From assembly GCF_001307295.1 (NCBI RefSeq), contig NZ_CP012700.1, forward strand, positions 499,001-563,000: 64,000 nt of DNA, given 5' to 3'. Position numbers and translations under genes: made by a program. A model generated the notes under the pieces. That model was not told the origin of the DNA and ran no database searches. It saw nothing but the letters and a program-made list of their open reading frames with translations. This stretch comes from Sphingopyxis macrogoltabida (GTDB taxonomy: Bacteria > Pseudomonadota > Alphaproteobacteria > Sphingomonadales > Sphingomonadaceae). This document shows, piece by piece, positions 51,886 to 63,817 of the stretch; position 1 is the stretch's first letter, and every line of letters begins with the position of its first letter.

Positions 51886-51961
51886 GGGCGCTTAGCTCAG
51901 TTGGTAGAGCATCTCGTTTACACCGAGAGGGTCGGCGGTTCGAGCCCGTCAGCGCCCACCA
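51886..51961 (+). tRNA. tRNA-Val (anticodon TAC)
   Basis: The 76-nt cloverleaf includes encoded CCA. The 7-bp acceptor stem GGGCGCT/AGCGCCC is perfect, the D arm is TAGCTCAGTTGGTAGAGCA, and the anticodon stem TCTCG/CGAGA has loop TTTACAC, so the anticodon is TAC. The T arm contains GGTTCGAGCC. It lies 55 bases after the MarR-type gene. Confidence 0.97.
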
Positions 51962-52090: not shown

Positions 52091-52104
52091 TGACATCGAT
52101 AACA
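52091..52104. promoter_or_regulatory. LacI-type operator before the MFS-esterase operon
   Basis: TGACATCGATAACA, one mismatch from the palindromes at 60802-60815 and 63804-63817. It is centred about 45 bp before ATG 52143. A second overlapping inverted repeat, ATAACA-TTAGT-TGTTAT, begins inside it. Confidence 0.7.
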
Positions 52105-52142
52105 TTAGTTGTTATGCGAGCGTCGAGAAACGGGAGAGGCAA

Positions 52143-53378
52143 ATGGTTCCGATGAGTGGTGAGGGGGCGGGCGCCGCCGCGCCGGGCGAGCTCGGCGGCA
52201 AGCGCGATCGTCTGGGCCTGGGGGTCTCGGGGCTCTATCTGGCGCTCTATCTTCACTACGGCTTTTTCGCTTTCCTGCCGTTGTGGCTCAAATCGACCGG
52301 GGCATCGCCGGAAGAAATCGGAATATTGTTGGCGATCCCGCTGGTGTTGCGGCTGCTGACCGTCGCCCCCTTTTCGGCGTTCGTCGGGCGGCGCGGCTGG
52401 GTGCGGAGCGCGATCGCCTATACCTCGCTCGCCTCGGCGGCGATCGTGCTGCTGTTGCTCGGCGAGCCCGATCATGCCGGGCGCGTCGTGATCGTGATCT
52501 TCTTTTCGATCGTGTGGGACCAGATCCCGGTGCTCACCGACGCCTATGCGGTGATGGCGGTGCGCAGCCGTTCGCTCGATTTCGGGCGGTTGCGCGTCTG
52601 GGGATCGATCGCGGTGGTCGCGTCGAACGCGGCGGCGGGCTGGGCGATAGGGGTCTTCGGCATCAAGATGCTGCCGTTGATGGTTGCGACGCTGTTGCTC
52701 GCGCCGGCCCTGGTCGCCTTTGCCTTGCCCGCCGACCGCAAGCTCGCCGGGGAAAGCGAGGAGCAGGGCGGACGCTGGCGCGACCTGATCGGCGATCGCG
52801 GCCTGATCCTCGCGATGGTCGCCGCATCGCTGATCATGGGCAGCCACGGCGTCCTGACCAGTTTCGGGGCGATCCAGTGGACCGCTCAGGGCATTTCGAC
52901 GACGACCGTCGGTCTGCTGCAGGCTTTGGCGGTCGCGGCGGAGATATTGGCCTTCTGGTTCGGCGCCAGGCTGCTCGGACCGCGCGATCCGCGGCTGCTG
53001 ATCTGCGCCGGGGCGATCGCGGGGGCGCTGCGCTGGGCGATCATGGCGACCAGCCCCGGCCTGCCCGTGCTGATCGCGGCGCAATTGCTCAACGGCATTA
53101 CTGCAACCGGCACCATCCTCGGTATCATGCTGGTGATCGCGACGCGCGTGCCGATGCATCTCAGCGCGACGGCGCAGGGGATGAACGCCGTGCTGCTCGG
53201 CGTTGTGCTCGCGCTCGCGACGGCGGGGTCGGGGCGGCTTTGGTCGCACGGACTGGACGTGGCTTATCTCGCGATGGCGGTACTCGCACTGCTCGGCGCG
53301 CTTTGTGCCTGGCCGGGGCGTATCGGAGCGACAGGCAGGATCGACACGGACGAATTGTCCGCAACTGGAGCCGAATGA
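52143..53378 (+). CDS. MFS importer (MFS_1-like / LacY-HcaT type), trehalose locus
   Basis: The 411-residue, twelve-helix protein has LYLALYLHYGFFAFLPLWLK at helix 1, TGASPEEIGILLAIPLVLRL, the helix 2-3 loop FVGRRGWVRSA, and LTDAYAVMAVRSRSLDFGRL with WGSIAVVASN, as in the LacY-related proton symporters for sugars, nucleosides or phenylpropionate. GGGAGAGG precedes the ATG. It is preceded by a LacI-type operator shared with the trehalase operon and overlaps the following esterase, so it is the likely inner-membrane importer of this locus. The substrate is inferred. Confidence 0.9.
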   Translation: MVPMSGEGAGAAAPGELGGKRDRLGLGVSGLYLALYLHYGFFAFLPLWLKSTGASPEEIGILLAIPLVLRLLTVAPFSAFVGRRGWVRSAIAYTSLASAAIVLLLLGEPDHAGRVVIVIFFSIVWDQIPVLTDAYAVMAVRSRSLDFGRLRVWGSIAVVASNAAAGWAIGVFGIKMLPLMVATLLLAPALVAFALPADRKLAGESEEQGGRWRDLIGDRGLILAMVAASLIMGSHGVLTSFGAIQWTAQGISTTTVGLLQALAVAAEILAFWFGARLLGPRDPRLLICAGAIAGALRWAIMATSPGLPVLIAAQLLNGITATGTILGIMLVIATRVPMHLSATAQGMNAVLLGVVLALATAGSGRLWSHGLDVAYLAMAVLALLGALCAWPGRIGATGRIDTDELSATGAE

Positions 53379-54379
53379 TCATGAATCGCAAGACCCTGCT
53401 TTTGGCCATGCTCCTTGCCGGAGCTGCGCCGGTGGGCGCGGAGGAGGCGCCTCCCATGCGCGATATGCAGAGCTGGCCGCTGCCCGAAACGCTCAGCCCG
53501 GAAGGGCGGGCGGCCGTGGCGGCGCTGGCGGCACAGAAGATGCCCGACCCGGTGCCGCCGATTGCCGAGGTCCGCAAGCTCATCGACATGATGCAGGCGG
53601 GCATGGGCGCGCCGCTCGAAAAGCGATACGAAGTGCGGATCGAAAACAGGGCAATCGCTGGTGTGCCGGTGCGCATCGTCTATCCCAAGGGGGTGACCGA
53701 GCTCGGCACGGGGCCGGTCCTGCTCAACCTTCACGGCGGCGGGTTCGCGGTCGATTCGGGGTCGCTGACCGAGACGATCCCGATTGCCGCGCGCAGCGGG
53801 ATTCCGGTCGTGGCGGTGCTGTATCGCCTGTCGCCCGAAAACCCTTATCCTGCGGCGCTCGACGATGCGCTGGCGGTCTATCGGGCGCTGGAGAAGGAGA
53901 GGACGGCGAAGCGGATCGCGGTGTTCGGAACCTCGGCGGGCGCGGCGCTGTCGGGGCAACTGGTCGCGAAGCTCGCCAGCCTGGGGCGGCCGATGCCCGC
54001 TGCGCTCGGCTATTTTTCGGGCAATGCCGACCTGTCGAAACGCGGCGATTCGGAATCGTGGATGCCGGGACCGCCGTTCGACTGGGTCGCCGACTATGTG
54101 GGCAAGAAGCCGGTGACCGATCCGGTCCTTTCGCCAATCCACGGCGATGTTTCGGGCTTCCCGCCGACGCTGTTGCTCAGCAGCACGCGCGATTTCCTGC
54201 TCAGCCCGACCGCGATTTTCGCGCGAAGGCTGACCGGGAAGGGCGTCGATGCGCGGCTCGTCGTCTTCGACGGGCTGCCGCACGCTTTCTGGGGCTATAT
54301 GGACATTCCTGAGACCGACGAGGCGAACGAGCTGATCGCGCGCTTCCTGAAGGACAAGCTCGCCGCTGCCGGGAAATGA
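53375..54379 (+). CDS. Secreted HSL-type esterase (GTSAG subgroup)
   Basis: The 334-residue product has a signal peptide (MIMNRKTLLLAMLLAGAAPVGA, cleavage before EEAPP). The alpha/beta hydrolase contains LNLHGGGFAVDSGS, RLSPENPYPAALDDAL, the nucleophile motif FGTSAGAAL (about 187), STRDFLLSP with the acid, and GLPHAFWGY with the His. It is the only clearly exported HSL esterase of the locus, and closely resembles the leaderless enzyme at 57478. I infer periplasmic removal of acyl groups before or during import. ATG 53375 overlaps the MFS stop; ATG 53381 is an alternative. Confidence 0.92.
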   Translation: MIMNRKTLLLAMLLAGAAPVGAEEAPPMRDMQSWPLPETLSPEGRAAVAALAAQKMPDPVPPIAEVRKLIDMMQAGMGAPLEKRYEVRIENRAIAGVPVRIVYPKGVTELGTGPVLLNLHGGGFAVDSGSLTETIPIAARSGIPVVAVLYRLSPENPYPAALDDALAVYRALEKERTAKRIAVFGTSAGAALSGQLVAKLASLGRPMPAALGYFSGNADLSKRGDSESWMPGPPFDWVADYVGKKPVTDPVLSPIHGDVSGFPPTLLLSSTRDFLLSPTAIFARRLTGKGVDARLVVFDGLPHAFWGYMDIPETDEANELIARFLKDKLAAAGK

Positions 54380-55966
54380 TCAGCCGGCCGCGGCGAGATG
54401 ATCGCGATAGGTATCGCGGAGCGCCTTCTTGTCGATCTTGCCGGTGGCGGTGAGCGGGACGCGCGCGAAGAGGATATCGTCGGGCATCCACCAGCGCACG
54501 ACGCGGGTTTCGAGATGCGCGCGAAGGGCCTCGGCGGTGACCGTTTCGCCTTCGTGGGCCTCGATGACCAGCAGCGGGCGTTCCTCCCACTTCGGATGAT
54601 AGACGCCGATGACGGCGGCGATGCGGACGCCGGGGCAGCCGACCGCGGCATTTTCGAGGTCGATCGAACTGATCCACTCGCCGCCCGACTTGATCACATC
54701 CTTCGCGCGGTCGGTCAGGCGCAGGAAACCGAAGCGGTCGATCGTGCCGATATCGCCGGTGTCGAACCAGCCGTCGCTGTCGGCGGCGGGCAGGTCGGGA
54801 TAATAATGGTCGACGACCCACGGCCCGCGCACCTGCAGCTTGCCCGCCTGCTCGCCATCCCACGCGAGCGGCGTGCCGTCGTCGTCGACGATGCGCAGCT
54901 CGATGCCGAACTGCATCCGCCCCTGCCGCGTCAGGATCGTTTCGGTCGCATAATCCTCGCCCTCCGCCATCAGCAGCGGGGTCGGGGTCGAGATCACGCC
55001 GAGCGGATTGGTTTCGGTCATCCCCCAGATCTGGAGGACGGTGACGCCATATTTTTCGCGAAAGGTTTCGGCCATCGCGCGCGGCACGGCCGAGCCGCCT
55101 ATGACAAGGCGTTTCAGGTCGCCGACACCCTGGCCGCTGTTCTCGAGATGCGACAGATACATCGTCCAGATCGTCGGGACGCCGCCCGAGAAGGTCACGC
55201 CCTCGCCCGCGATCAGCTCGGCAAGGCTCGCGCCGTCCATCCTGTCGCACGGCAGGACCAGCTTGCAGCCGTTGATCGCGGCGGTGAAGGGCAGGCCCCA
55301 CGCCGTCGCATGATACATCGATGAGCAGGGCATGATCGTGTCGAAAGCGCTGAATCCGAAGGCGCTGCTGAGCCCCGCCGCCATGCCGTGCAGCACGATC
55401 GAACGGTGGCTGTAGAGCACGCCCTTGGGATCGCCCGTCGTGCCCGAGGTATAGCAGAGGAAGGCTGCGGCATTTTCGTCGAACCGCGGCCAGTCGAAAA
55501 CGCCGTCCTCGGCAGCGATCAATTGCTCATAGGGGTCGGCGAGCAGGACATATTCTTCAATCGCGGGAAGCAGCGGCTTGAGGCGGTCGACGAGCTCGGC
55601 GAGATTGGCCTCGAAGAAGAGGACGCGGCTGCCGGCATGGTTGATCGTGAAGGCGATCTGTTCGTCGCTGAGCCGCGGGTTGGCGGTGTGGAGGACCGCA
55701 CCGATGCCGGGAACGGCATAGAAAAGTTCGAGATGCCGGTGCGTGTTCCAGGCCAGCGACGACACCCGGTCGCCGCTTTCGATCCCGAGCCTGCCGAGCA
55801 TCTGTGCGGCCTGCCGCGAGCGCTGCTCGCAGCCCGCCCAATCATAGCGCCACAACGGTTCGCCGACGAGCTTCGAGACGATTTCGCGCCCGCCATGCGC
55901 CCGTGCCGCATGGGTCAGGATCGCACTGATCAGCAGGGGGGCGTCCTGCATCAAGCCGGCCAGCAT
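54380..55966 (-). CDS. AMP-forming acyl-CoA synthetase, trehalose locus
   Basis: The 528-residue product has [18 protein letters not shown] (about residue 167), [12 protein letters not shown] (about 315), [17 protein letters not shown] (about 400) and the terminal [11 protein letters not shown]. It is a close relative of 7541-9148 in the sucrose locus, including the shared SLAWNTHRH and HTANPRL segments. As the last gene of the receptor-esterase-trehalase operon it would activate fatty acids released by the esterases. It ends one base from the convergent esterase gene. Confidence 0.94.
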
Positions 55967-55993
55967 CGTCTCTCCTCTTGCGGCGCACCGCAG

Positions 55994-57478
55994 CTATTCT
56001 GTCGGTGGTGACAGGTCGTAGCGGTCGATAAAATCGGCGGTGACGCCGTTTGTCCAGCCAAACCCGGTCTGGGTCGCATATTCGCCGCCGCCGCCGACGC
56101 CCGCCTGCTCGAGGTCATATTTTTCGAACAGCAGTCCGGTGCGGGCGAAGGTGGTGCCGACCGTATCGACCCAGCGGCCGGCAATGTCGCGCGCCAGCGC
56201 GTCGTGCCCGTAGCGCTTTAAACCCGCGACCGCGATCCATTGCAACGGCGCCCAGCCGTTCGGCCGGTCCCACTGCTGGCCTGTTGCGGCGAGCGTCGTG
56301 TGCAGGCCGCCGCGTGCAAGCAGCCGTTCGGCGACTGCCGCGGCGGTGCTGTCGGCCTGTTCCTGCGTCGCCACGCCGACCAGCAAGGGCGCCAGCGCGG
56401 CGGCGGTGAGCGGCGGACGCAGGCGGGCCCGTTCGACGTCGACATCGGCGAAATAGCCGCCTTCGGCGTGCCAGAGATGGCGGTTCATCGCGGCGCGTCG
56501 TTCTTCTGCCAACCGGGCGTAATGTCCCGCGTCGCTATCGTTGCTCGCTGCGATCGCCGACTCCAGCCCGAACAGGAAGGCGTTTAGGTCGACCGGGGCG
56601 ATCGCCGTCGTGCGGATCGACGGCAGGGCATCGCCGTCCAGCCAGCGCGACGAGAAATCCCAGCCGCTTTCGGCGCCGGCGCGCAGGTCGCGATAAACCT
56701 CGCCCACCGGGCGCCCGCTCGCGGCGGCGGTCGCGACATCCTCGCGCCAGCTTTCGTCGCGCGGGGTATCGCGCGGGTCCCAATAGCGGTTGAGGAGGTC
56801 GCCGTCGGCGAGCCGGACAACGCGCGCGTTGCTGCTGCCGGGGTCGAGATTGTCGGCGCCTGCCATCCACCACGCATGCTCGCGCTTCATTGCCGAAAGG
56901 CGGCGGGCTGCCACCATGCTTTGCCGGTCACCGAGCAATTCAACCATCATGTGGAAGAGCGGCGGCTGCGAGCGGCCGAGATAATAAGTGCGCGTGCCGT
57001 TCGGGATATGGCCATGCGTCTCGATCAGGTCGGTCATCGCGTCGACGATGCCGTTGGCGAGTTCCAGTTCGCTATCGCGGACGAGGCCCAGCATCGTGAA
57101 GAAGCTGTCCCAATAATAGATTTCGCGAAAGCGGCCGCCCGGCACGACATGGCGGTGCTGGACGGCGAGCGCCGATCCGCCGGCGGCCTGTTCGGGGGCG
57201 CGCGCGAGTTCCTTCCACAGCGCGCGGATATGCGCGCGGAGCGGCAGCACGGCGGGGCTGGCGCCGGTCGTCTGCGCGGGGAGGTCGAAGTTTGCCGCGA
57301 TGAAGGCGCGTAGCGCCGCGTCGCCCGGGGCCAGCGCCGCGAAGTCATGCATGATGTCGGCGACCGGACGCCGCGGCAGGGCATCGACGAAGGTCTTGCC
57401 GTCGGGCAGGATCGCGCGCTCCTGCACCTTGGCGAGGAGCGGTCCGTAGAGGTCGGCGGGGCTCGGTTCGGCGCCCAT
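55994..57478 (-). CDS. GH37 trehalase, cytoplasmic
   Basis: The 494-residue protein carries both trehalase signatures: PGGRFREIYYWDSFFTMLGL (about residue 140) and QWDRPNGWAPLQW (about 415). It also has the catalytic-Asp region SGWDFSSRWL (about 282), and the terminal Glu region GEYATQTGFGWTNGV. It hydrolyses alpha,alpha-trehalose to two glucoses. The ATG at 57478 overlaps the esterase stop (TGATG), and no signal peptide is present, so unlike TreA it acts in the cytoplasm. The operon position next to esterases and a TonB receptor suggests trehalose arrives as part of a larger molecule. Confidence 0.95.
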   Translation of the reverse strand: MGAEPSPADLYGPLLAKVQERAILPDGKTFVDALPRRPVADIMHDFAALAPGDAALRAFIAANFDLPAQTTGASPAVLPLRAHIRALWKELARAPEQAAGGSALAVQHRHVVPGGRFREIYYWDSFFTMLGLVRDSELELANGIVDAMTDLIETHGHIPNGTRTYYLGRSQPPLFHMMVELLGDRQSMVAARRLSAMKREHAWWMAGADNLDPGSSNARVVRLADGDLLNRYWDPRDTPRDESWREDVATAAASGRPVGEVYRDLRAGAESGWDFSSRWLDGDALPSIRTTAIAPVDLNAFLFGLESAIAASNDSDAGHYARLAEERRAAMNRHLWHAEGGYFADVDVERARLRPPLTAAALAPLLVGVATQEQADSTAAAVAERLLARGGLHTTLAATGQQWDRPNGWAPLQWIAVAGLKRYGHDALARDIAGRWVDTVGTTFARTGLLFEKYDLEQAGVGGGGEYATQTGFGWTNGVTADFIDRYDLSPPTE

Positions 57479-58434
57479 CAGCGTGCGAGATGCCTGTCGA
57501 AGAAAGCCGCCTGCGCCGCGAGCGCATCCTCGGTCTCGGGGCATTCCATATAGGCCCAGAAGGCATGCAGCATGCCTTCATAAACCATCAGATCGGCGTC
57601 GACCCCGGCTTTGCGCAGCGCGAGATGGAAGCGTATGGTTTGGCTCAATAGCTGGTCGCGCGTGCTGGTCATCAGCAGCGTCGGGGGAAGGCCGGTCAAG
57701 TCGCCGTAAAGCGGCGAGAGCAGCGGGTCGGTGCGCTCGGTCCCTGCGGCATAATCGGCGAGGACTTCGGGGCCTGTCCGTGTGCCCATGATCGACGGCA
57801 GGAAGGCTTCGCAGTCGCTGACGAGCGCGAGATCGGCCGATCCCGAGAAGAAGCCGGCGGCGGCGGGCATCGGCAGGCCTTCGGCCTTGATCCGCGCGAG
57901 GAGCTGGCCGGTCAGGACCGCGCCCGCCGAGGTGCCATAGATGCCGATCGATGCCGGCGATCGCTGCGACAGGGCGTTGCGATAGACTGCGAGCGCATCG
58001 TCGACCGCGGCCGGAAACGGATGTTCGGGCGCCATCCGGTACATCACCGTGGCAACCGATATTCCGGTCAGTCCGGCGATAGGGATTGTTTCGGTCTCCG
58101 AACCCGAATCGACCATGAAACCGCCGCCGTGGAAATTGATCAGCAGCCGCCGGTCGGGCGATGCGTCGCTTTCCCGGCGCCGCACGAACTTCACGGGAAC
58201 CCCCGCCACCGTCCCTTTGCCGACATCGACGCCGAAACGCTTCGCGCGGCTTTTGTTCAGCGGCTTCAGGTGACTGGCCGCTGCCGCGCGAACCGCCTTA
58301 CGCGTGATCGCATTGCGCATCAGCGTCGCGGTCATTTCCGGCGCCGACCCGGCTGCGAGCAGCGGCGTCATGACGGCGCGCGCTTCTTCGCTCACCGTCG
58401 GCGCAAAGGGCGGCTGGGCGGGGCTTTTACCCAT
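57478..58434 (-). CDS. HSL-type esterase (GTSAG subgroup), cytoplasmic
   Basis: The 318-residue product contains INFHGGGFMVDSGSETETI, RMAPEHPFPAAVDDALAVY, IYGTSAGAVLTGQLLA with the nucleophile Ser (about 170), MTSTRDQLLSQT with the acid, and EGMLHAFWAY with the His. It is closely similar to the secreted esterase at 53375 but has no signal peptide. It is four bases after the TonB receptor and overlaps trehalase, so it should deacylate an imported sugar ester just before sugar cleavage. Confidence 0.92.
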   Translation of the reverse strand: MGKSPAQPPFAPTVSEEARAVMTPLLAAGSAPEMTATLMRNAITRKAVRAAAASHLKPLNKSRAKRFGVDVGKGTVAGVPVKFVRRRESDASPDRRLLINFHGGGFMVDSGSETETIPIAGLTGISVATVMYRMAPEHPFPAAVDDALAVYRNALSQRSPASIGIYGTSAGAVLTGQLLARIKAEGLPMPAAAGFFSGSADLALVSDCEAFLPSIMGTRTGPEVLADYAAGTERTDPLLSPLYGDLTGLPPTLLMTSTRDQLLSQTIRFHLALRKAGVDADLMVYEGMLHAFWAYMECPETEDALAAQAAFFDRHLAR

Positions 58435-58438
58435 CGGC

Positions 58439-60742
58439 TCAGCTTCCGAAACGGTAGCCGATCCGCACGCCGTACATCCGGGGTTCGGTATAGGTCAGGC
58501 CGACCATGCCCGACGACTGGGCATATTGGTCGAGCACCCCGACCGGCTTCGCCTCGTTGGTGATGTTGTTTGCGAACAAGCTGACGTCGAGCGGCCGTCC
58601 GCCGATATCCTTGAGCCCGATGCTGGCGTTGAGCAGGCCATAGGCCGGCAAGTAATTATAGAAGGACGCGTTGGTCTGTGCGGTCGACACCTTGGTCTGG
58701 CGGGCATAGTTGACCGCGAGGACCAGATCGCCGGCGCTGCCCAGCGACGTCTCGTAAGAGCCGCCGACCGAAAATTTGTGCTTCGGTGTGTAAGGGAAGG
58801 GCGCGCCATTGAGGATCGCGCCGGCGCTGGCGTCGGCGACCTCGGTATAGCGCGCGTCGATGTAGGAATAGCTGCCGTTCAGCGTCAGCCCCTGCACCGG
58901 CATGACCAACAGGTTCAGCTCGACGCCCTGGATTTTGCCTTTCGCGGCGCTGCGCGTGACATTGAGCGGTATCGTGCCGCCCGGCGTTTCGACGACCTCG
59001 GCTGTCGTGCGCTGGATATTGTCGTAGATGCCGCGATAGGCGGCGACGTTGGCGCGGACATCGACATTGCCGAGCGAGAATTGCGACTTCAGCCCGACCT
59101 CGATGTCCGAAAGCCGCTCGGGCTTGTAGGTGCGGAATTCCGAATCGACCGGCACCGGCCCGTTGACGCCGCCCGACTTGTAGGCATCGCGCGCGGTGAC
59201 ATAGACATGGACGCCGGGCGTCACATCATAGTCGAGCGTCGCGGTGTAGCTCGGATAATCGCTGTCGACCGAACCCGAGACCGTCGGCGGACCGCCGATC
59301 GTCTGCGCGGTGAAGCTGTGCTCCCATGTGTAGCGAAGGCCGCCCGTGACGCTGAGCCCGGTCAGCGCGCCCGACAGCTTGCCGAGATCGACCGTCGCCT
59401 GCCCGAACACCGCCTCGCTCTTGTTCGTCTGGGTAAAGAAGCCCGAGATCGTCGGCAGCAGCGTCCCGATCGGGAAGAAGGTATATTCCTCGATCCCCGC
59501 CGGATCGCTCCAGCTCTGCCGGTCGAGATAGCCGCCGACCGAGAAATCGACCGCGTCGTCGAACAAGGTGCCCTGAAGCTGCAATTCCTCGGTGAAGAAA
59601 TTGGGCGCGATGGTCGGAATGCGCCCGCGCTGCCCGGCGATCGGGAAGGGCATGGCGTCATAGTCATAGCCGTAGATGGTGCGCAGTTCGGAATAGCTGA
59701 TGATGTTGCGCAGCTTGATATTGTCGCTGAGCTGGACCGAGGCCTGGTTGATCACCTGCCAATATTTCGTCTCCGAAAACTGGTCGAGATCATAGGAGAC
59801 GCGGCGCGGGCCGCGTGCTTGCTGTTCGGCGACCGCGGTCAGCACGCCGGGATAGAAGGCGGCGACCGGCAGGAAGCCCAGCCCCAGTGCCGTGGCGTCG
59901 TAACCCGCGACGGGGTTGTAGGCGCCGAGAACGGTGCCGCCGCCATTGGTGTCCGAATGATAGTAGCGCAGCATCGTATAAAGTTCGATGTCGTCGGTCG
60001 GCTGCAAGGTCAGGCCGAAACGGAAGCTTTCATACGCCAGATTGTCATAGTCCTTGCCCTCGAAGAAGGGGCCGACATCCTTGGTGTAGCCGTCGCGGCG
60101 GCCGACTTCGCCGGCGACGCGCAGCATCACCCGGCCGGGAACGATCGGCGTGTTGAGTGCGCCCTCGATCCGGCGGTCGTCATAATTGCCGAGCTGGACG
60201 CGGACATAACCTTCGAATTCGTCCTTCGGCTTGACCGGCTCGAACAGGATGTTGCCGCCCGTCGCATTCTTGCCGAACAGGGTGCCCTGCGGTCCGGCGA
60301 GCACCTGGATGTTGGCCATGTCGAAATAGGTGCCGACGCGGCCGTCGACGTTCACGCTGTTCGGGACTTCGGCGAAATAATTGACCACGCCGGGGGTCGA
60401 GCCGAAGGCCGGGCCCTGGCCGCGCAACGCGAAATAGGCGAATTCGCGGGGATAGCCGCCGCTGATCGTGAACAGCGAGGGGGTGTTGTCGGCGAGCGAG
60501 GTGCGATCGGTGACGCCCTTTTGTTCGAGCGCCTCGTCGGTGAAGGCCGTGACCGCGATCGGCACGCTCTGCAGATTTTCCTCGCGGCGACGGGCGGTGA
60601 CGATGATGTCGCCGAGGCCGCTGTCGTCGCTGGTGGTGGTCTCGTCGGCCGGCGGCGTTTCGGTCTGAGCAAAGGCGGCGGCGGGCAGCAGGCTCGCGCC
60701 GCTCGCGAGCGCGATCAGAAAGGCGGAACGCATCGAAATCAT
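58439..60742 (-). CDS. TonB-dependent outer-membrane receptor (trehalose locus)
   Basis: The 767-residue product has a signal peptide (MISMRSAFLIALASGASLLP..., cleavage after AFAQ), a TonB-box-like DIIVTARRREENLQSVPIAV, a plug with VLAGPQGTLFGKNATGGNIL, and a 22-strand-type barrel ending MYGVRIGYRFGS. ATG 60742 is seven bases after GGGAGGGAA. It is the first gene of the receptor-esterase-trehalase-synthetase operon. Two LacI-type operators lie in the 149-bp gap to the divergent esterase. The ligand is inferred to be an acylated trehalose or similar glycolipid. Confidence 0.94.
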   Translation of the reverse strand: MISMRSAFLIALASGASLLPAAAFAQTETPPADETTTSDDSGLGDIIVTARRREENLQSVPIAVTAFTDEALEQKGVTDRTSLADNTPSLFTISGGYPREFAYFALRGQGPAFGSTPGVVNYFAEVPNSVNVDGRVGTYFDMANIQVLAGPQGTLFGKNATGGNILFEPVKPKDEFEGYVRVQLGNYDDRRIEGALNTPIVPGRVMLRVAGEVGRRDGYTKDVGPFFEGKDYDNLAYESFRFGLTLQPTDDIELYTMLRYYHSDTNGGGTVLGAYNPVAGYDATALGLGFLPVAAFYPGVLTAVAEQQARGPRRVSYDLDQFSETKYWQVINQASVQLSDNIKLRNIISYSELRTIYGYDYDAMPFPIAGQRGRIPTIAPNFFTEELQLQGTLFDDAVDFSVGGYLDRQSWSDPAGIEEYTFFPIGTLLPTISGFFTQTNKSEAVFGQATVDLGKLSGALTGLSVTGGLRYTWEHSFTAQTIGGPPTVSGSVDSDYPSYTATLDYDVTPGVHVYVTARDAYKSGGVNGPVPVDSEFRTYKPERLSDIEVGLKSQFSLGNVDVRANVAAYRGIYDNIQRTTAEVVETPGGTIPLNVTRSAAKGKIQGVELNLLVMPVQGLTLNGSYSYIDARYTEVADASAGAILNGAPFPYTPKHKFSVGGSYETSLGSAGDLVLAVNYARQTKVSTAQTNASFYNYLPAYGLLNASIGLKDIGGRPLDVSLFANNITNEAKPVGVLDQYAQSSGMVGLTYTEPRMYGVRIGYRFGS

Positions 60743-60801
60743 GTCTTCCCTCCCAAAGGATAGCCGGATTCGTCCGGTCGGCAATGCGAATGACTGAAAA
60801 T

Positions 60802-60815
60802 GATATCGATGTCAA
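60802..60815. promoter_or_regulatory. LacI-type operator before the TonB receptor operon
   Basis: TGATATCGATGTCA, the exact reverse complement of the site at 63804-63817; the dyad is at the CpG. It is 60 bases upstream of ATG 60742 in the divergent control region. Confidence 0.78.
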
Positions 60816-60866
60816 CAGCTCTTGCATGAAGGACAGGAAAGTATATCAATAGCCGTGATTAAGATT

Positions 60867-60880
60867 TGCTATCGATAACA
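60867..60880. promoter_or_regulatory. LacI-type operator before the divergent esterase
   Basis: TGCTATCGATAACA, same dyad core (TATCGATA) with three changes from the consensus site. It ends 11 bases before ATG 60892, overlapping where the ribosome site region begins. Confidence 0.65.
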
Positions 60881-60891
60881 GAGAGGATGCC

Positions 60892-61821
60892 ATGAGTGAC
60901 GCCGGACAATTCGGGCCGTGGGTCAGCGACGAAGCGAAGGCGCGATTTGCCGCCTTTCTAGAAGAGTCGGTGACGCCGCCCAATCTCGCTGCGGCGCGGC
61001 CGTTCTTCCGCGACTACAACCAGCGCCTGCTGGACAAAGCGCAGGCGGGATATGCGGTCGATGTCGCCGAACGCACGATTGCCGGCGTCACGGGCTATGA
61101 GGTGGTCCCGGCGGGGGGCGCGGCCGATGCCCCGGTGCTGCTCTGCCTCCACGGCGGCGCCTTCATGTGGGGCGAAGGGCCGGGCGCGCTGCTCGAAGCG
61201 GTGCCGATTGCGGCGGTCGCCGGGATGCGCGTGCTCGCGGTCGATTATCGCCTCGCGCCCGAACATGTCTATCCGGCGGCGGTCGAGGACGTCGTCGCGG
61301 TTTACCGGGCGCTGATCGAAACGGTCGATCCCGCGCGGATCGGCATTTATGGCTGCTCGGCCGGCGCATTGCTGACGACGCAGGCGGTCGCGCGCTTCCT
61401 CCACGATGGCCTGCCGGGTCCCGGCGCGATCGGCCTGTTTCACGGCGCGCCGCTCCCCTTCTCGGGCGATGCGGCGCTGGCGCAGAAGCTGTTCGATCCG
61501 CGGGCGGGATCGGGCGCGGCGCCGAAAGTCGAGGAACTGCCCTATTTCCTGGGCGCGGACCTGTCCGATCCGCTCGTGCTGTCCGCCGGGCATCCTCAAT
61601 TGCTCGCGCTGTTCCCGCCGAGCCTGCTGATTTCAGCGACCCGTGATTTTGCCGCGAGCGCCGTGTCGGTCATGCATCGCCGCCTGCTCGCGGCGGGGAC
61701 CGATACAAGCTTCGTCCTGTTCGACGGGCTGTGGCACGCGCATCATATGGACGTCGACCTGCCCGAATCGGTCGAGACCTATGCGATCGTCGCGGACTTC
61801 TTCCGCAAGCGCCTCGGCTAG
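60892..61821 (+). CDS. HSL-like esterase with GCSAG nucleophile motif
   Basis: The 309-residue alpha/beta hydrolase has LLCLHGGAFMWGEGPG (HGGA instead of HGGG in the oxyanion loop), YRLAPEHVYPAAVEDVVAVY, IYGCSAGALLTTQ (nucleophile Ser about 161), SATRDFAAS with the acid, and GLWHAHHMD with the His. It is a relative of the GTSAG enzymes at 53375 and 57478. There is no signal peptide. A GAGAGGA site precedes the ATG. It diverges from the receptor operon under LacI-type operators and ends five bases from the LacI gene, tail to tail. Confidence 0.9.
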   Translation: MSDAGQFGPWVSDEAKARFAAFLEESVTPPNLAAARPFFRDYNQRLLDKAQAGYAVDVAERTIAGVTGYEVVPAGGAADAPVLLCLHGGAFMWGEGPGALLEAVPIAAVAGMRVLAVDYRLAPEHVYPAAVEDVVAVYRALIETVDPARIGIYGCSAGALLTTQAVARFLHDGLPGPGAIGLFHGAPLPFSGDAALAQKLFDPRAGSGAAPKVEELPYFLGADLSDPLVLSAGHPQLLALFPPSLLISATRDFAASAVSVMHRRLLAAGTDTSFVLFDGLWHAHHMDVDLPESVETYAIVADFFRKRLG

Positions 61822-61826
61822 GGTCC

Positions 61827-62828
61827 CTAGCGGCTCGTCTCGCGCGCGATCAGTTCGACCGGGAGCGCGTGCGCGGGGGCAGCGGTGTCGCCTTCGATCA
61901 AGGCGATGACGGCATGGGCCAGCGCGTGGCCGGCCTCGGCGCCGTCCTGACGGATCGAACTGATCGACGGGCGATGCACGCTGGCGATCGGCGCATCGTC
62001 GAAGCCGACGATCGCGACGTCGCCGGGGACGGAAAGCTTGCGTGCCGACAGGGCATCGCACGCGCCGGCAGCGATAAAATCGCTTGCAGCAAAGACCGCG
62101 TCGAACGTCGTTCCGGCATCGAGCGCGCTGCGGATCGCCTCGGCGCCGCCCTCGGCGGTGAACGGGCAGGAAAGCGCCCCGACGAGGCGCGCCTCGCTCG
62201 AGGCCAGCGCTTCGCGAAACCCTTCGAGGCGGGCGGCGATTTCGGGATGCTGGACGTCGCCGAGGAACAGCAGGCGCGTTGCGCCGCGGCCGACCAGATG
62301 CTCGGCGGCGAGCTTGCCGCCCATGCGATTGTCGCTGCCCACGACCTTGACGCTGACGCCGGGGACGGGCTCCCCCCAGACGACCATCGGCAGGTTCATG
62401 GCGGAAACCTGCGTGACGCGGTGCGCGCCCTCGCCCTGGCCGAGCATGACCGCGCCGTCGGCCCCGACCGCGCTCGACGACAGGAAATGCTCGTTGGTGG
62501 TCAGCAGGGTCGAATAGCCGGCCGGGGTCAGCGTTTCGAGCAGGCCGCCGATGATCGACAGGATCAGCGGGTCGGTGTGCGACTGGCGGCCGGGATCGAT
62601 CTGGTCGATCACGACGGCAATCGTCCGCGTTTCGCGGGTGCGCAGGCTGCGGGCCGCGACATTCATCCGGTAACCGACCTGGCCTGCGACCTGGACGATG
62701 CGTTCGCGGACTTCGGGGCGGACCAGATCGCTGCCGCGCAGGGCGCGCGACACGGTGATCTTCGAAACGCCGGCCAGCGTCGCGACCATTTCCATCGTCG
62801 GGCGTTCGCTCTTGCCTGTCCTGCTCAT
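61827..62828 (-). CDS. LacI-family transcriptional repressor
   Basis: The 333-residue protein has the LacI HTH at the N-terminus (TMEMVATLAGVSKITVSRAL), the hinge helix region VGYRMNVAARSLRT, and a periplasmic-binding-protein-like effector domain (GGLLETLTPAGYSTLLT, VAIVGFDDAPIASVHRPSIS). It most likely binds the TGACATCGATATCA palindromes at 52091, 60802, 60867 and 63804 and releases them when a sugar inducer is present. The link to these sites is inferred from proximity and from their LacI-type symmetry. Confidence 0.94.
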   Translation of the reverse strand: MSRTGKSERPTMEMVATLAGVSKITVSRALRGSDLVRPEVRERIVQVAGQVGYRMNVAARSLRTRETRTIAVVIDQIDPGRQSHTDPLILSIIGGLLETLTPAGYSTLLTTNEHFLSSSAVGADGAVMLGQGEGAHRVTQVSAMNLPMVVWGEPVPGVSVKVVGSDNRMGGKLAAEHLVGRGATRLLFLGDVQHPEIAARLEGFREALASSEARLVGALSCPFTAEGGAEAIRSALDAGTTFDAVFAASDFIAAGACDALSARKLSVPGDVAIVGFDDAPIASVHRPSISSIRQDGAEAGHALAHAVIALIEGDTAAPAHALPVELIARETSR

Positions 62829-62867
62829 GGCTGCCCGTTCCCCGAAGCCGATCCCGATCGATGGCCG

Positions 62868-63773
62868 TTATTGATTTGCGAAGTAGCGGCGGACCAGCCC
62901 TCCGATCAAGTCATTGGCTGCCGCCACTGCGGGAATTGTGATTGGCAGGAACTGGAAACCGTGCGGCAGGCCGGGCAGGCGGCGGGCCAGCGTCTCGACG
63001 CCGGCGCGAACGAGCGCCGCAGCATAATATTCGCCATCGTCGCGCAGCGGATCTTCGGATGCGGTCAGGACGATCGCGGGCGCAAGGCCGTCGAGGCGCT
63101 CGGCACGCAGCGGCGAGACGAACGGATCGGCGACCGAACCGCTGCCGAGATAAAATTCGCGGCACGCATCGAGATAGTTTTTCGACAGGCCCGGCGCCCC
63201 GACTTCGGCGAACGACGGCAAGGAAAAACTGAGGTCGGTGGCGGGATGGATCAGCAACTGGAACAGCGGCTGCGGCTTGTTTTCGGCGCGCAGGCGGAGG
63301 GTCGCGGCGGCGGTCAGATTGCCCCCTGCGCTTTCGCCGCCGAGCGCGATGCGCGCGGGATCGCAGCCGAGATCGCCGGCCGAGCGCCGCGCCCAGTCGA
63401 GCGCGGTCATCGCATCGTCGAGTCCGGCCGGGAATTTATGCTCGGGGGCGAGGCGATAATCGACACCGAGCACCGCGCAGCTGCTCGCTGCGGCAAGGTG
63501 CCGGGTCATCGCGTCGTGCGTGTCGAGGTCGCCGAACATCCAGCCGCCGCCGTGGAGGAAGACGAGCAGCGGCAGCGGCGTGTCGGACGCCGGGCGATAG
63601 AAGCGGACCGGCACCCCGTCGGCATCGAGATTTGCGACATGGTCGATGTCGGTTCCGGGCATCGCGGCCGCCATCATCGCCATATTGGCGCGCATCATCG
63701 GTATAAGCTCCGGGGTCAGCGGCGGCATTTCCTGCGGCTGTCCGGTGAAGGCGGCGATATCGGGATCGAGCAT
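62868..63773 (-). CDS. HSL-type esterase with GESAG motif
   Basis: The 301-residue product contains VFLHGGGWMFGDLDTHDAMT, YRLAPEHKFPAGLDDAMTAL, LGGESAGGNLTAA (nucleophile Ser about 149), TASEDPLRDDGE with the acid and GLPHGFQFL with the His. ATG 63773 (MLDPDIAAF) is six bases after AGAGG; the ATG six bases earlier is too close. There is no signal peptide. A perfect LacI-type operator lies 31 bases upstream of the start. It is the fourth HSL-type esterase of this locus. Confidence 0.92.
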   Translation of the reverse strand: MLDPDIAAFTGQPQEMPPLTPELIPMMRANMAMMAAAMPGTDIDHVANLDADGVPVRFYRPASDTPLPLLVFLHGGGWMFGDLDTHDAMTRHLAAASSCAVLGVDYRLAPEHKFPAGLDDAMTALDWARRSAGDLGCDPARIALGGESAGGNLTAAATLRLRAENKPQPLFQLLIHPATDLSFSLPSFAEVGAPGLSKNYLDACREFYLGSGSVADPFVSPLRAERLDGLAPAIVLTASEDPLRDDGEYYAAALVRAGVETLARRLPGLPHGFQFLPITIPAVAAANDLIGGLVRRYFANQ

Positions 63774-63803
63774 GGGCATCCTCTGATGATTGAATCGTCT
63801 TGA

Positions 63804-63817
63804 TGACATCGATATCA
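63804..63817. promoter_or_regulatory. LacI-type operator before the GESAG esterase
   Basis: TGACATCGATATCA, identical in reverse complement to 60802-60815. On the minus strand a TTGGAC hexamer about 20 bases upstream may be the -35 element. Confidence 0.78.

What the first reader, a model, noticed from the sequence alone, without database searches (positions are those of the whole stretch)
52091..63817. Trehalose locus with four HSL-type esterases: possible acyl-trehalose (trehalolipid) catabolism
The minus-strand operon TonB receptor, leaderless HSL esterase, leaderless GH37 trehalase, acyl-CoA synthetase has gaps of 4, overlap and 27 bases. An MFS importer with a secreted esterase, two further esterases and a LacI repressor surround it. 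A cytoplasmic trehalase with periplasmic and cytoplasmic esterases and a synthetase suggests that the nutrient is an ester of trehalose whose acyl groups are removed in two compartments and both halves consumed.
Basis: partly seen in the sequence, partly recalled or inferred. Interest (0 to 1): 0.85.

Follow-up and report, generated by a model that had tools for sequence, protein, structure and literature searches.

The report
Locus for eating acylated trehalose
A gene cluster in a sphingomonad bacterium looks built to take in trehalose that carries fatty-acid groups, strip off the acids, split the sugar and use both halves, and in some relatives the acid-stripping and sugar-splitting enzymes are fused into one protein.

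Summary
The given bounds are the outer two of four copies of a palindrome, TGNNATCGATNNCA, that precedes all four transcription units (4 in the window, 0.12 expected). Gene set and palindromes recur in 11 further contigs from at least four sphingomonad genera.

Three comparative results point to esters of trehalose as substrate. (1) An enzyme able to make acyl-CoA from the freed acid is present in 11 of 12 loci, but it belongs to unrelated families. (2) The trehalase has no leader here, whereas 58 of 65 compared relatives without esterases have one. (3) In Hyphomonadaceae an esterase of the same kind is fused to the trehalase (5 protein clusters, active-site motifs intact).

The genome also holds a second, separately regulated trehalase-esterase locus with GH1, GH3 and GH42 enzymes.

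Acyl chains are unknown; HSL enzymes usually take short or medium chains, so mycolates are unlikely. The permease is not clearly a sugar permease. I saw no paper describing such a pathway. All function is inferred; nothing was assayed.

The parts
52091..52104 (.). operator-like palindrome O1, upstream of MFS-Est1
   Evidence: TGACATCGATAACA
52143..53378 (+). MFS permease (MFS_1_like family)
   Evidence: PF12832 over cut-off; NF037955 177.7, cut-off 100; 3-phenylpropionate transporter model 182, under cut-off 259
53381..54379 (+). Est1, HSL-type esterase with Sec-type leader
   Evidence: NF058649 445 bits over cut-off; HGGGF, GTSAG, STRDF, PHAF
54380..55966 (-). AMP-forming acyl-CoA synthetase
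   Evidence: PF00501, PF13193; NF004837 long-chain ligase subfamily 511, cut-off 476; nearest solved 6ihk 508 bits
55994..57478 (-). GH37 trehalase without leader
   Evidence: PF01204 449 bits; catalytic motifs aligned to 2jf4 and 5z66
57478..58434 (-). Est2, HSL-type esterase without leader
   Evidence: PF07859; NF058649 373.6, cut-off 380; GTSAG
58439..60742 (-). TonB-dependent receptor
   Evidence: PF07715 Plug 38 bits over cut-off; start set at the ATG behind GGGAGGG
60801..60814 (.). operator-like palindrome O2, upstream of the receptor operon
   Evidence: TGATATCGATGTCA
60867..60880 (.). operator-like palindrome O3, upstream of Est3
   Evidence: TGCTATCGATAACA
60892..61821 (+). Est3, HSL-type esterase without leader
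   Evidence: PF07859; NF058650 344.6, cut-off 410; HGGAF, GCSAG
61827..62828 (-). LacI-family regulator
   Evidence: PF00356 and PF13377 over cut-off; E. coli TreR model only 70 bits, cut-off 357
62868..63773 (-). Est4, HSL-type esterase without leader
   Evidence: PF07859 223 bits; HGGGW, GESAG
63804..63817 (.). operator-like palindrome O4, upstream of Est4-LacI
   Evidence: TGACATCGATATCA

Best explanation
This is a LacI-controlled catabolic locus for esters of trehalose, most likely with short- to medium-chain acids. Proposed path: the TonB receptor takes the acyl trehalose through the outer membrane; secreted Est1 removes acyl groups in the periplasm; the MFS permease imports the sugar, free or partly acylated; Est2, Est3 and Est4 finish the deacylation in the cytoplasm; the leaderless GH37 enzyme splits trehalose into two glucoses; the synthetase turns the freed acid into acyl-CoA for beta-oxidation; the LacI protein keeps all four units off until a breakdown product binds it. 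Shown by sequence: gene content and order, shared palindromes, their conservation, the recurrence of unrelated acid-activating enzymes, the leader difference, the fusions. Inferred: substrate, transport, compartments, order of steps, inducer.
For: Same palindrome on all four units, 4 of the genome's 7. Gene set conserved in 12 contigs: trehalase and MFS 12 of 12, receptor 11 of 11, LacI, Est3 and Est4 10 of 10 that reach them, Est1 11 of 12, Est2 8 of 11. Acid-activating gene in 11 of 12, from unrelated families. Esterase-trehalase fusions in 5 of 120 listed protein clusters with motifs of both halves intact. Core GTSAG HSLs of 396 genomes: 5 of 6 over the cut-off lie within 3 kb of a GH37 gene. 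The five best HSL matches of the own genome (257-447 bits) all lie in its two trehalase loci. Leaderless trehalase in 15 of 19 esterase-linked cases against 7 of 65 others.
Against: No assay. The permease is nearest a 3-phenylpropionate transporter model, and LacY_symp is under its cut-off (19 of 24 bits). The regulator is not of the E. coli TreR family. Three genomes with GTSAG-like HSLs below the cut-off (G236, G347, G366) have no GH37 gene and other surroundings. L017 has no acid-activating gene of the kinds sought. HSL enzymes are broad, so their presence does not name a substrate. The leader test is a crude rule of mine on related sequences.
Confidence: 0.75

Rival explanations
1. An ordinary trehalose locus: free trehalose is the nutrient, and the esterases and synthetase act on other esters found beside it, for example in fungal or insect debris.
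For: The trehalase is an intact, normal GH37 enzyme; HSL esterases are broad (family knowledge); 65 of the 80 nearest trehalase loci have no HSL hit, so trehalose use needs none.
Against: The fusion of esterase and trehalase in one polypeptide and the near-exclusive siting of core GTSAG HSLs beside GH37 genes.
Confidence: 0.12
2. The substrate is a larger acylated oligosaccharide or glycolipid of which trehalose is only one part, and the window locus works together with locus 2.
For: Locus 2 in the same genome adds GH1, GH3 and GH42 enzymes and more alpha/beta hydrolases.
Against: Locus 1 occurs without locus 2 neighbours in the other loci seen, holds no other glycosidase, and the two loci have different palindromes.
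Confidence: 0.1
3. Mycolate-type lipids (trehalose mono- or dimycolate) are the specific substrate.
For: They are the best-known acyl trehaloses (established knowledge); the window synthetase passes a long-chain ligase subfamily cut-off (511 of 476 bits).
Against: HSL enzymes usually prefer short chains, and PMGL2, the nearest solved relative of Est1, prefers C8 and C10 (passages of PMC6986724).
Confidence: 0.03

Closest known systems
LacI-regulated TonB-receptor sugar-utilisation loci of Proteobacteria (recalled as a class)
   Same: receptor, inner-membrane permease, hydrolases and a local LacI regulator with shared operators
   Different: four esterases and an acid-activating enzyme are part of the regulon
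E. coli periplasmic trehalase TreA / Tre37A (2jf4; organism recalled)
   Same: aligned over residues 5-485 of 494 with 476 bits, catalytic motifs kept
   Different: no leader here; lies in an esterase operon
HSL esterases of the GTSAG/GCSAG group (PMGL2, E25)
   Same: Est1 is over the NF058649 cut-off; PMGL2 is its nearest solved relative, 163.5 bits, E25 129.6
   Different: PMGL2 comes from a permafrost metagenome and was tested on p-nitrophenyl butyrate (passages of PMC6986724); here gene context suggests a natural substrate
Trehalose recycling from mycolates by mycobacteria (LpqY-SugABC; recalled)
   Same: trehalose freed from its esters is taken up again
   Different: an ABC importer and the cell's own lipid; here a TonB receptor, an MFS permease and probably a foreign lipid

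Membership tests
GH37 trehalase | Pfam Trehalase domain and the conserved PGGRFRE, SGWDFSS, GQQWD and GGEY motifs (roles of the catalytic Asp and Glu recalled) | tested here: met
   PF01204 449 bits; motifs aligned to two solved enzymes
GH37 trehalase | hydrolysis of alpha,alpha-trehalose | not testable with these tools
   needs an assay
HSL esterases, GTSAG subfamily | NF058649 score over 380 and GTSAG motif | tested here: met
   Est1 444.9 bits, GTSAG
HSL esterases, GTSAG subfamily | the same for Est2 | tested here: inconclusive
   373.6 bits, just under the cut-off, GTSAG present
HSL esterases, GCSAG subfamily | NF058650 score over 410 for Est3 | tested here: not met
   344.6 bits, although GCSAG is present; filed as HSL-type only
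HSL esterases, LipP1 family | NF058653 score over 350 for Est4 | tested here: not met
   262.7 bits; filed as HSL-type only, PF07859 223 bits
LacI-family regulator | LacI helix-turn-helix and sugar-binding domain | tested here: met
   PF00356 46.7, PF13377 97.7 bits
LacI-family regulator | binds the palindromes | not testable with these tools
   only co-conservation seen
E. coli-type trehalose repressor TreR | TIGR02405 score over 357 | tested here: not met
   69.8 bits
TonB-dependent receptor | plug and barrel domains | tested here: inconclusive
   Plug passes; no barrel family listed in Pfam; TIGR01783 90.8, under cut-off 223.5
fatty acyl-CoA synthetase | AMP-binding domains and a fatty-acid ligase subfamily cut-off | tested here: met
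   PF00501, PF13193; NF004837 511.3, cut-off 476; its best model NF005426 (676.7, cut-off 822) is not met

The most novel reading that the evidence does not exclude
Sphingomonads and Hyphomonadaceae carry a family of dedicated pathways for eating other organisms' trehalose glycolipids: locus 1 for simple acyl trehaloses, locus 2 (with GH1, GH3, GH42 and more esterases) for glycosylated acyl trehaloses such as lipooligosaccharide-like lipids, and a fused, secreted esterase-trehalase in Hyphomonadaceae. They would be trophic links to actinobacteria that make these lipids.
Probability: 0.3. Interest if true: 0.85.

Novelty: new variant of a known kind. Interest (0 to 1): 0.72.

Why it matters
Trehalose esters are made by many actinobacteria and are used as biosurfactants (established knowledge), but I saw no paper on a pathway that consumes them. 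If true, these loci name the receptor, esterases, trehalase and regulator to test, give a natural substrate to a group of HSL esterases known to me only from test esters, and supply enzymes that strip acyl trehaloses. The fused proteins, of which the one from Hyphomonas oceanitis is named only a trehalase, are ready-made test objects.

Tried and rejected
Mycolate specificity was set aside because of the chain preference reported for HSL enzymes. Gain from a plasmid: 75 plasmid records have a GH37 match, all under 60% identity, no closer than chromosomal relatives. A one-per-genus count in the family was too sparse to use alone: trehalase at E 1e-60 in 7 of 119 genomes, Est1-like at E 1e-50 in 3 of 119, one of these a partial match. 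The fused protein in 385 class genomes gave 0 matches at E 1e-200 with no positive control, so it says nothing. In the LacI search, 12 of the 15 matches in 396 genomes are only 248-282 bits; the neighbours of two of these 12 were scanned and both are GH65 enzymes, one of them next to a sulfatase; L108 stands beside a trehalase and an MFS2-like gene; the other nine were not scanned. In some searches at most five candidates per genome were scored. My gene caller misses genes (Est1 in L014 and L118, the trehalase of L077), so presence and absence were taken from tblastn. One search cut Est4 in the wrong frame; it was set right before use. The leader test is a rule of my own: L015 and L068 were dropped as cut off, and L077, L025 and L029 were moved to the esterase-linked side; the rows are related to one another, so the Fisher value of 3e-8 is not a true probability. 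Literature searches for such a locus, with what I saw of their listings: 5 of 5; none found; 15 of 151; 2 of 2; 8 of 4,340; 4 of 4; none of the listed titles is about it, and I opened none of these papers. The only paper opened, in passages, is PMC6986724.
Full report
THE OBSERVATION. The spacings given are exact. The pattern TGNNATCGATNNCA occurs four times in the window (52091, 60801, 60867, 63804) against a mean of 0.12 in shuffles and seven times in the 5.1-Mb genome. Of the other three genomic sites two lie inside genes and one near the starts of two divergent genes. The four sites here precede MFS-Est1, TBDR-Est2-trehalase-ACS, Est3 and Est4-LacI. A rough Poisson value for four in 12 kb is 1e-8.

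CONSERVATION. The scan for the closest trehalases in named genomes kept the best 80 loci. By tblastn trehalase and MFS are in 12 of 12, the receptor in 11 of 11, LacI, Est3 and Est4 in 10 of 10 that reach them, Est1 in 11 of 12 (two cut by the end of the stretch) and Est2 in 8 of 11. Est3 of L017 is in two pieces. Each of the 11 other contigs has at least one exact palindrome in front of the corresponding genes; in the ten that reach it, a pair 66-67 bp apart stands between Est3 and the receptor, in some with one mismatch in one member, down to 54% identity of the LacI protein. The locus is rare: a LacI of more than 370 bits is in 3 of 396 sampled order genomes; G005, outside that sample, has it too.

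ACID-TO-COA STEP. Eleven of the 12 loci have an enzyme that could activate the freed acid, but not the same one: an AMP ligase nearest PRK07008 in the window (677 bits, cut-off 822; it does pass the PRK06187 long-chain ligase cut-off, 511 of 476) with relatives of 90-91% identity in L014, L015, L117, L118; one nearest PRK12583 in L016 and L018 (708 and 718 bits, cut-off 832); one nearest PRK06155 in L035 and L053 (504 and 506 bits, cut-off 722), followed by a thiolase of the lipid-transfer type over its cut-off (641 and 647 bits); and an acetyl-CoA hydrolase/transferase family protein in L027, L035, L053 and L116, the only such gene found in L027 and L116. In L017 none of these kinds was found; that locus also lacks Est1 and has what looks by eye like a transposase next to the trehalase. 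The Brevundimonas loci L046 and L085, of another lineage, have yet another ligase (L046: 551 bits, over its cut-off 476). Repeated recruitment of unrelated enzymes for one step is good evidence that the step is needed (inference). Chain length cannot be read from these matches.

THE TREHALASE. It aligns with two solved periplasmic trehalases over nearly its whole length with the catalytic motifs intact. By my own rule, 15 of 19 esterase-linked trehalases (the window's included) have no leader; the four exceptions are the two Brevundimonas loci and the two fused proteins. Of 65 others, 7 have none and 58 have one. On the tree the 16 trehalases of loci 1 and 2 fall on one side of a weakly supported branch (79/93); the Brevundimonas and Hyphomonadaceae cases form another group (100/98), so the tie between esterase and trehalase arose more than once or was lost in between. 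An HSL hit is present in 15 of the 80 nearest trehalase loci, in 14 of them in the same cluster and in L087 about 9 kb away.

THE FUSION. In L025 and L029, two Hyphomonadaceae MAGs, esterase and trehalase are one frame of 873 codons with a leader that looks like a lipoprotein's; both domains are far over their Pfam cut-offs (481 and 115 bits). A search of 5.8 billion proteins found 3,323 matches and listed the best 120, of which five clusters (P0002, which is the query, and P0003-P0006, 60-69% identical) carry both domains; P0004 is from Hyphomonas oceanitis and is named only alpha,alpha-trehalase TreF. HGGA, GCSAG, PGGRFRE, SGWDFSS and GGGEY are present in all five, and the RDF and HAFF stretches that should hold the Asp and His of the esterase are invariant in their alignment (assignment from family knowledge). 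In L029 the next gene is a glucose/galactose-type MFS permease over its cut-off (250 of 203 bits), which would fit a version in which glucose is made outside the inner membrane and then imported. Fusion of two enzymes usually means successive steps (inference).

A SECOND LOCUS IN THE SAME GENOME. The genome has one more GH37 gene, at C1:3121710-3123122. It too lies in an esterase cluster: LacI, receptor, an alpha/beta hydrolase, two GH1, a GTSAG HSL, a GCSAG HSL, an MFS permease, a leaderless trehalase, another alpha/beta hydrolase, GH3 and GH42. Most of it recurs in L111, and parts in L077 and L115. Its palindrome, TGAAATGCATTTCA, is identical in the own genome and L111, similar in L077, and was not found in L115 or L019, so the two loci are probably controlled apart. 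Of the genome's 12 HSL matches the five best (257-447 bits) are all in these two loci and the sixth is Est4.

REVERSE TEST. Starting from the esterase, NF058649 over its cut-off gives 6 matches in 5 of 396 order genomes (at most five candidates scored per genome); 5 of the 6 are within 3 kb of a GH37 gene, and the sixth (G159) lies in a locus-2-like cluster, with that genome's GH37 gene on another contig beside a LacI and an MFS2-like gene. Six further matches are under the cut-off at E 1e-95 or better: three lie in locus 1 (G000, G008, G163) and three (G236, G347, G366) are in genomes with no GH37 match and in other surroundings. The tie is strong for the core of the subfamily and absent for its fringe.

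WHAT IT EATS. HSL enzymes usually prefer short chains, and PMGL2 prefers C8 and C10 (passages of PMC6986724). Natural trehalose esters with short or medium acids exist: trehangelins of the endophytic actinomycete Polymorphospora rubra (start of the abstract of PMC8770704; that the acid is angelic is recalled) and Rhodococcus trehalolipids (search listing). I favour such compounds over mycolates; which of them is open. Against a plain sugar path stands the permease, whose nearest named model is a 3-phenylpropionate transporter (182 bits, under its cut-off 259); it could carry a partly acylated sugar or the acid.

NOVELTY. Eight searches of the open-access library showed no paper on an acyl-trehalose utilisation locus or an esterase-trehalase fusion among the titles listed (for some only 15 of 151 and 8 of 4,340 were listed). 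Most subscription journals and all preprints are not covered. I rate it a new variant of a known kind: the layout is that of a sugar-utilisation locus; the substrate class and the fused enzyme are new to me.

Noticed in passing
L025:2805-5423, L029:8885-11503; proteins P0002-P0006: Natural fusion of a GCSAG HSL esterase with a GH37 trehalase in one polypeptide; the Hyphomonas oceanitis copy is named only a trehalase.
   Followed up: partly
L010 and L094 (G000:C1, about 3115900-3134000): Second trehalase-esterase locus of the same genome, with GH1, GH3 and GH42 enzymes, its own LacI and its own palindrome; the flanks hold genes that look mobile by eye (integrases, transposases).
   Followed up: partly
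L103 and L106: LacI proteins at 45-47% identity to the window's stand next to a GH65 enzyme, in L103 also next to a sulfatase; ten further relatives of this kind were not scanned or differ (L108).
   Followed up: partly
L017:5649-6573: Est3 of this Novosphingobium locus matches in two pieces, Est1 and an acid-activating gene are missing and a transposase-like gene follows: perhaps a decaying copy.
   Followed up: no
L010:8291-9658 and L010:16938-18506: Two alpha/beta hydrolases with no clear family (weak likeness to polyester depolymerase models) that recur in locus 2 and in the Brevundimonas and Hyphomonadaceae loci.
   Followed up: partly
window 51886-51961: A tRNA-Val gene lies directly at the left edge of the locus; not examined as an insertion site.
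   Followed up: no
L053:11572-18174 and L035:15054-18035: In these loci a CoA hydrolase/transferase family gene, an acyl-CoA ligase and a lipid-transfer-type thiolase are joined to the trehalase gene set, extending it towards beta-oxidation.
   Followed up: partly
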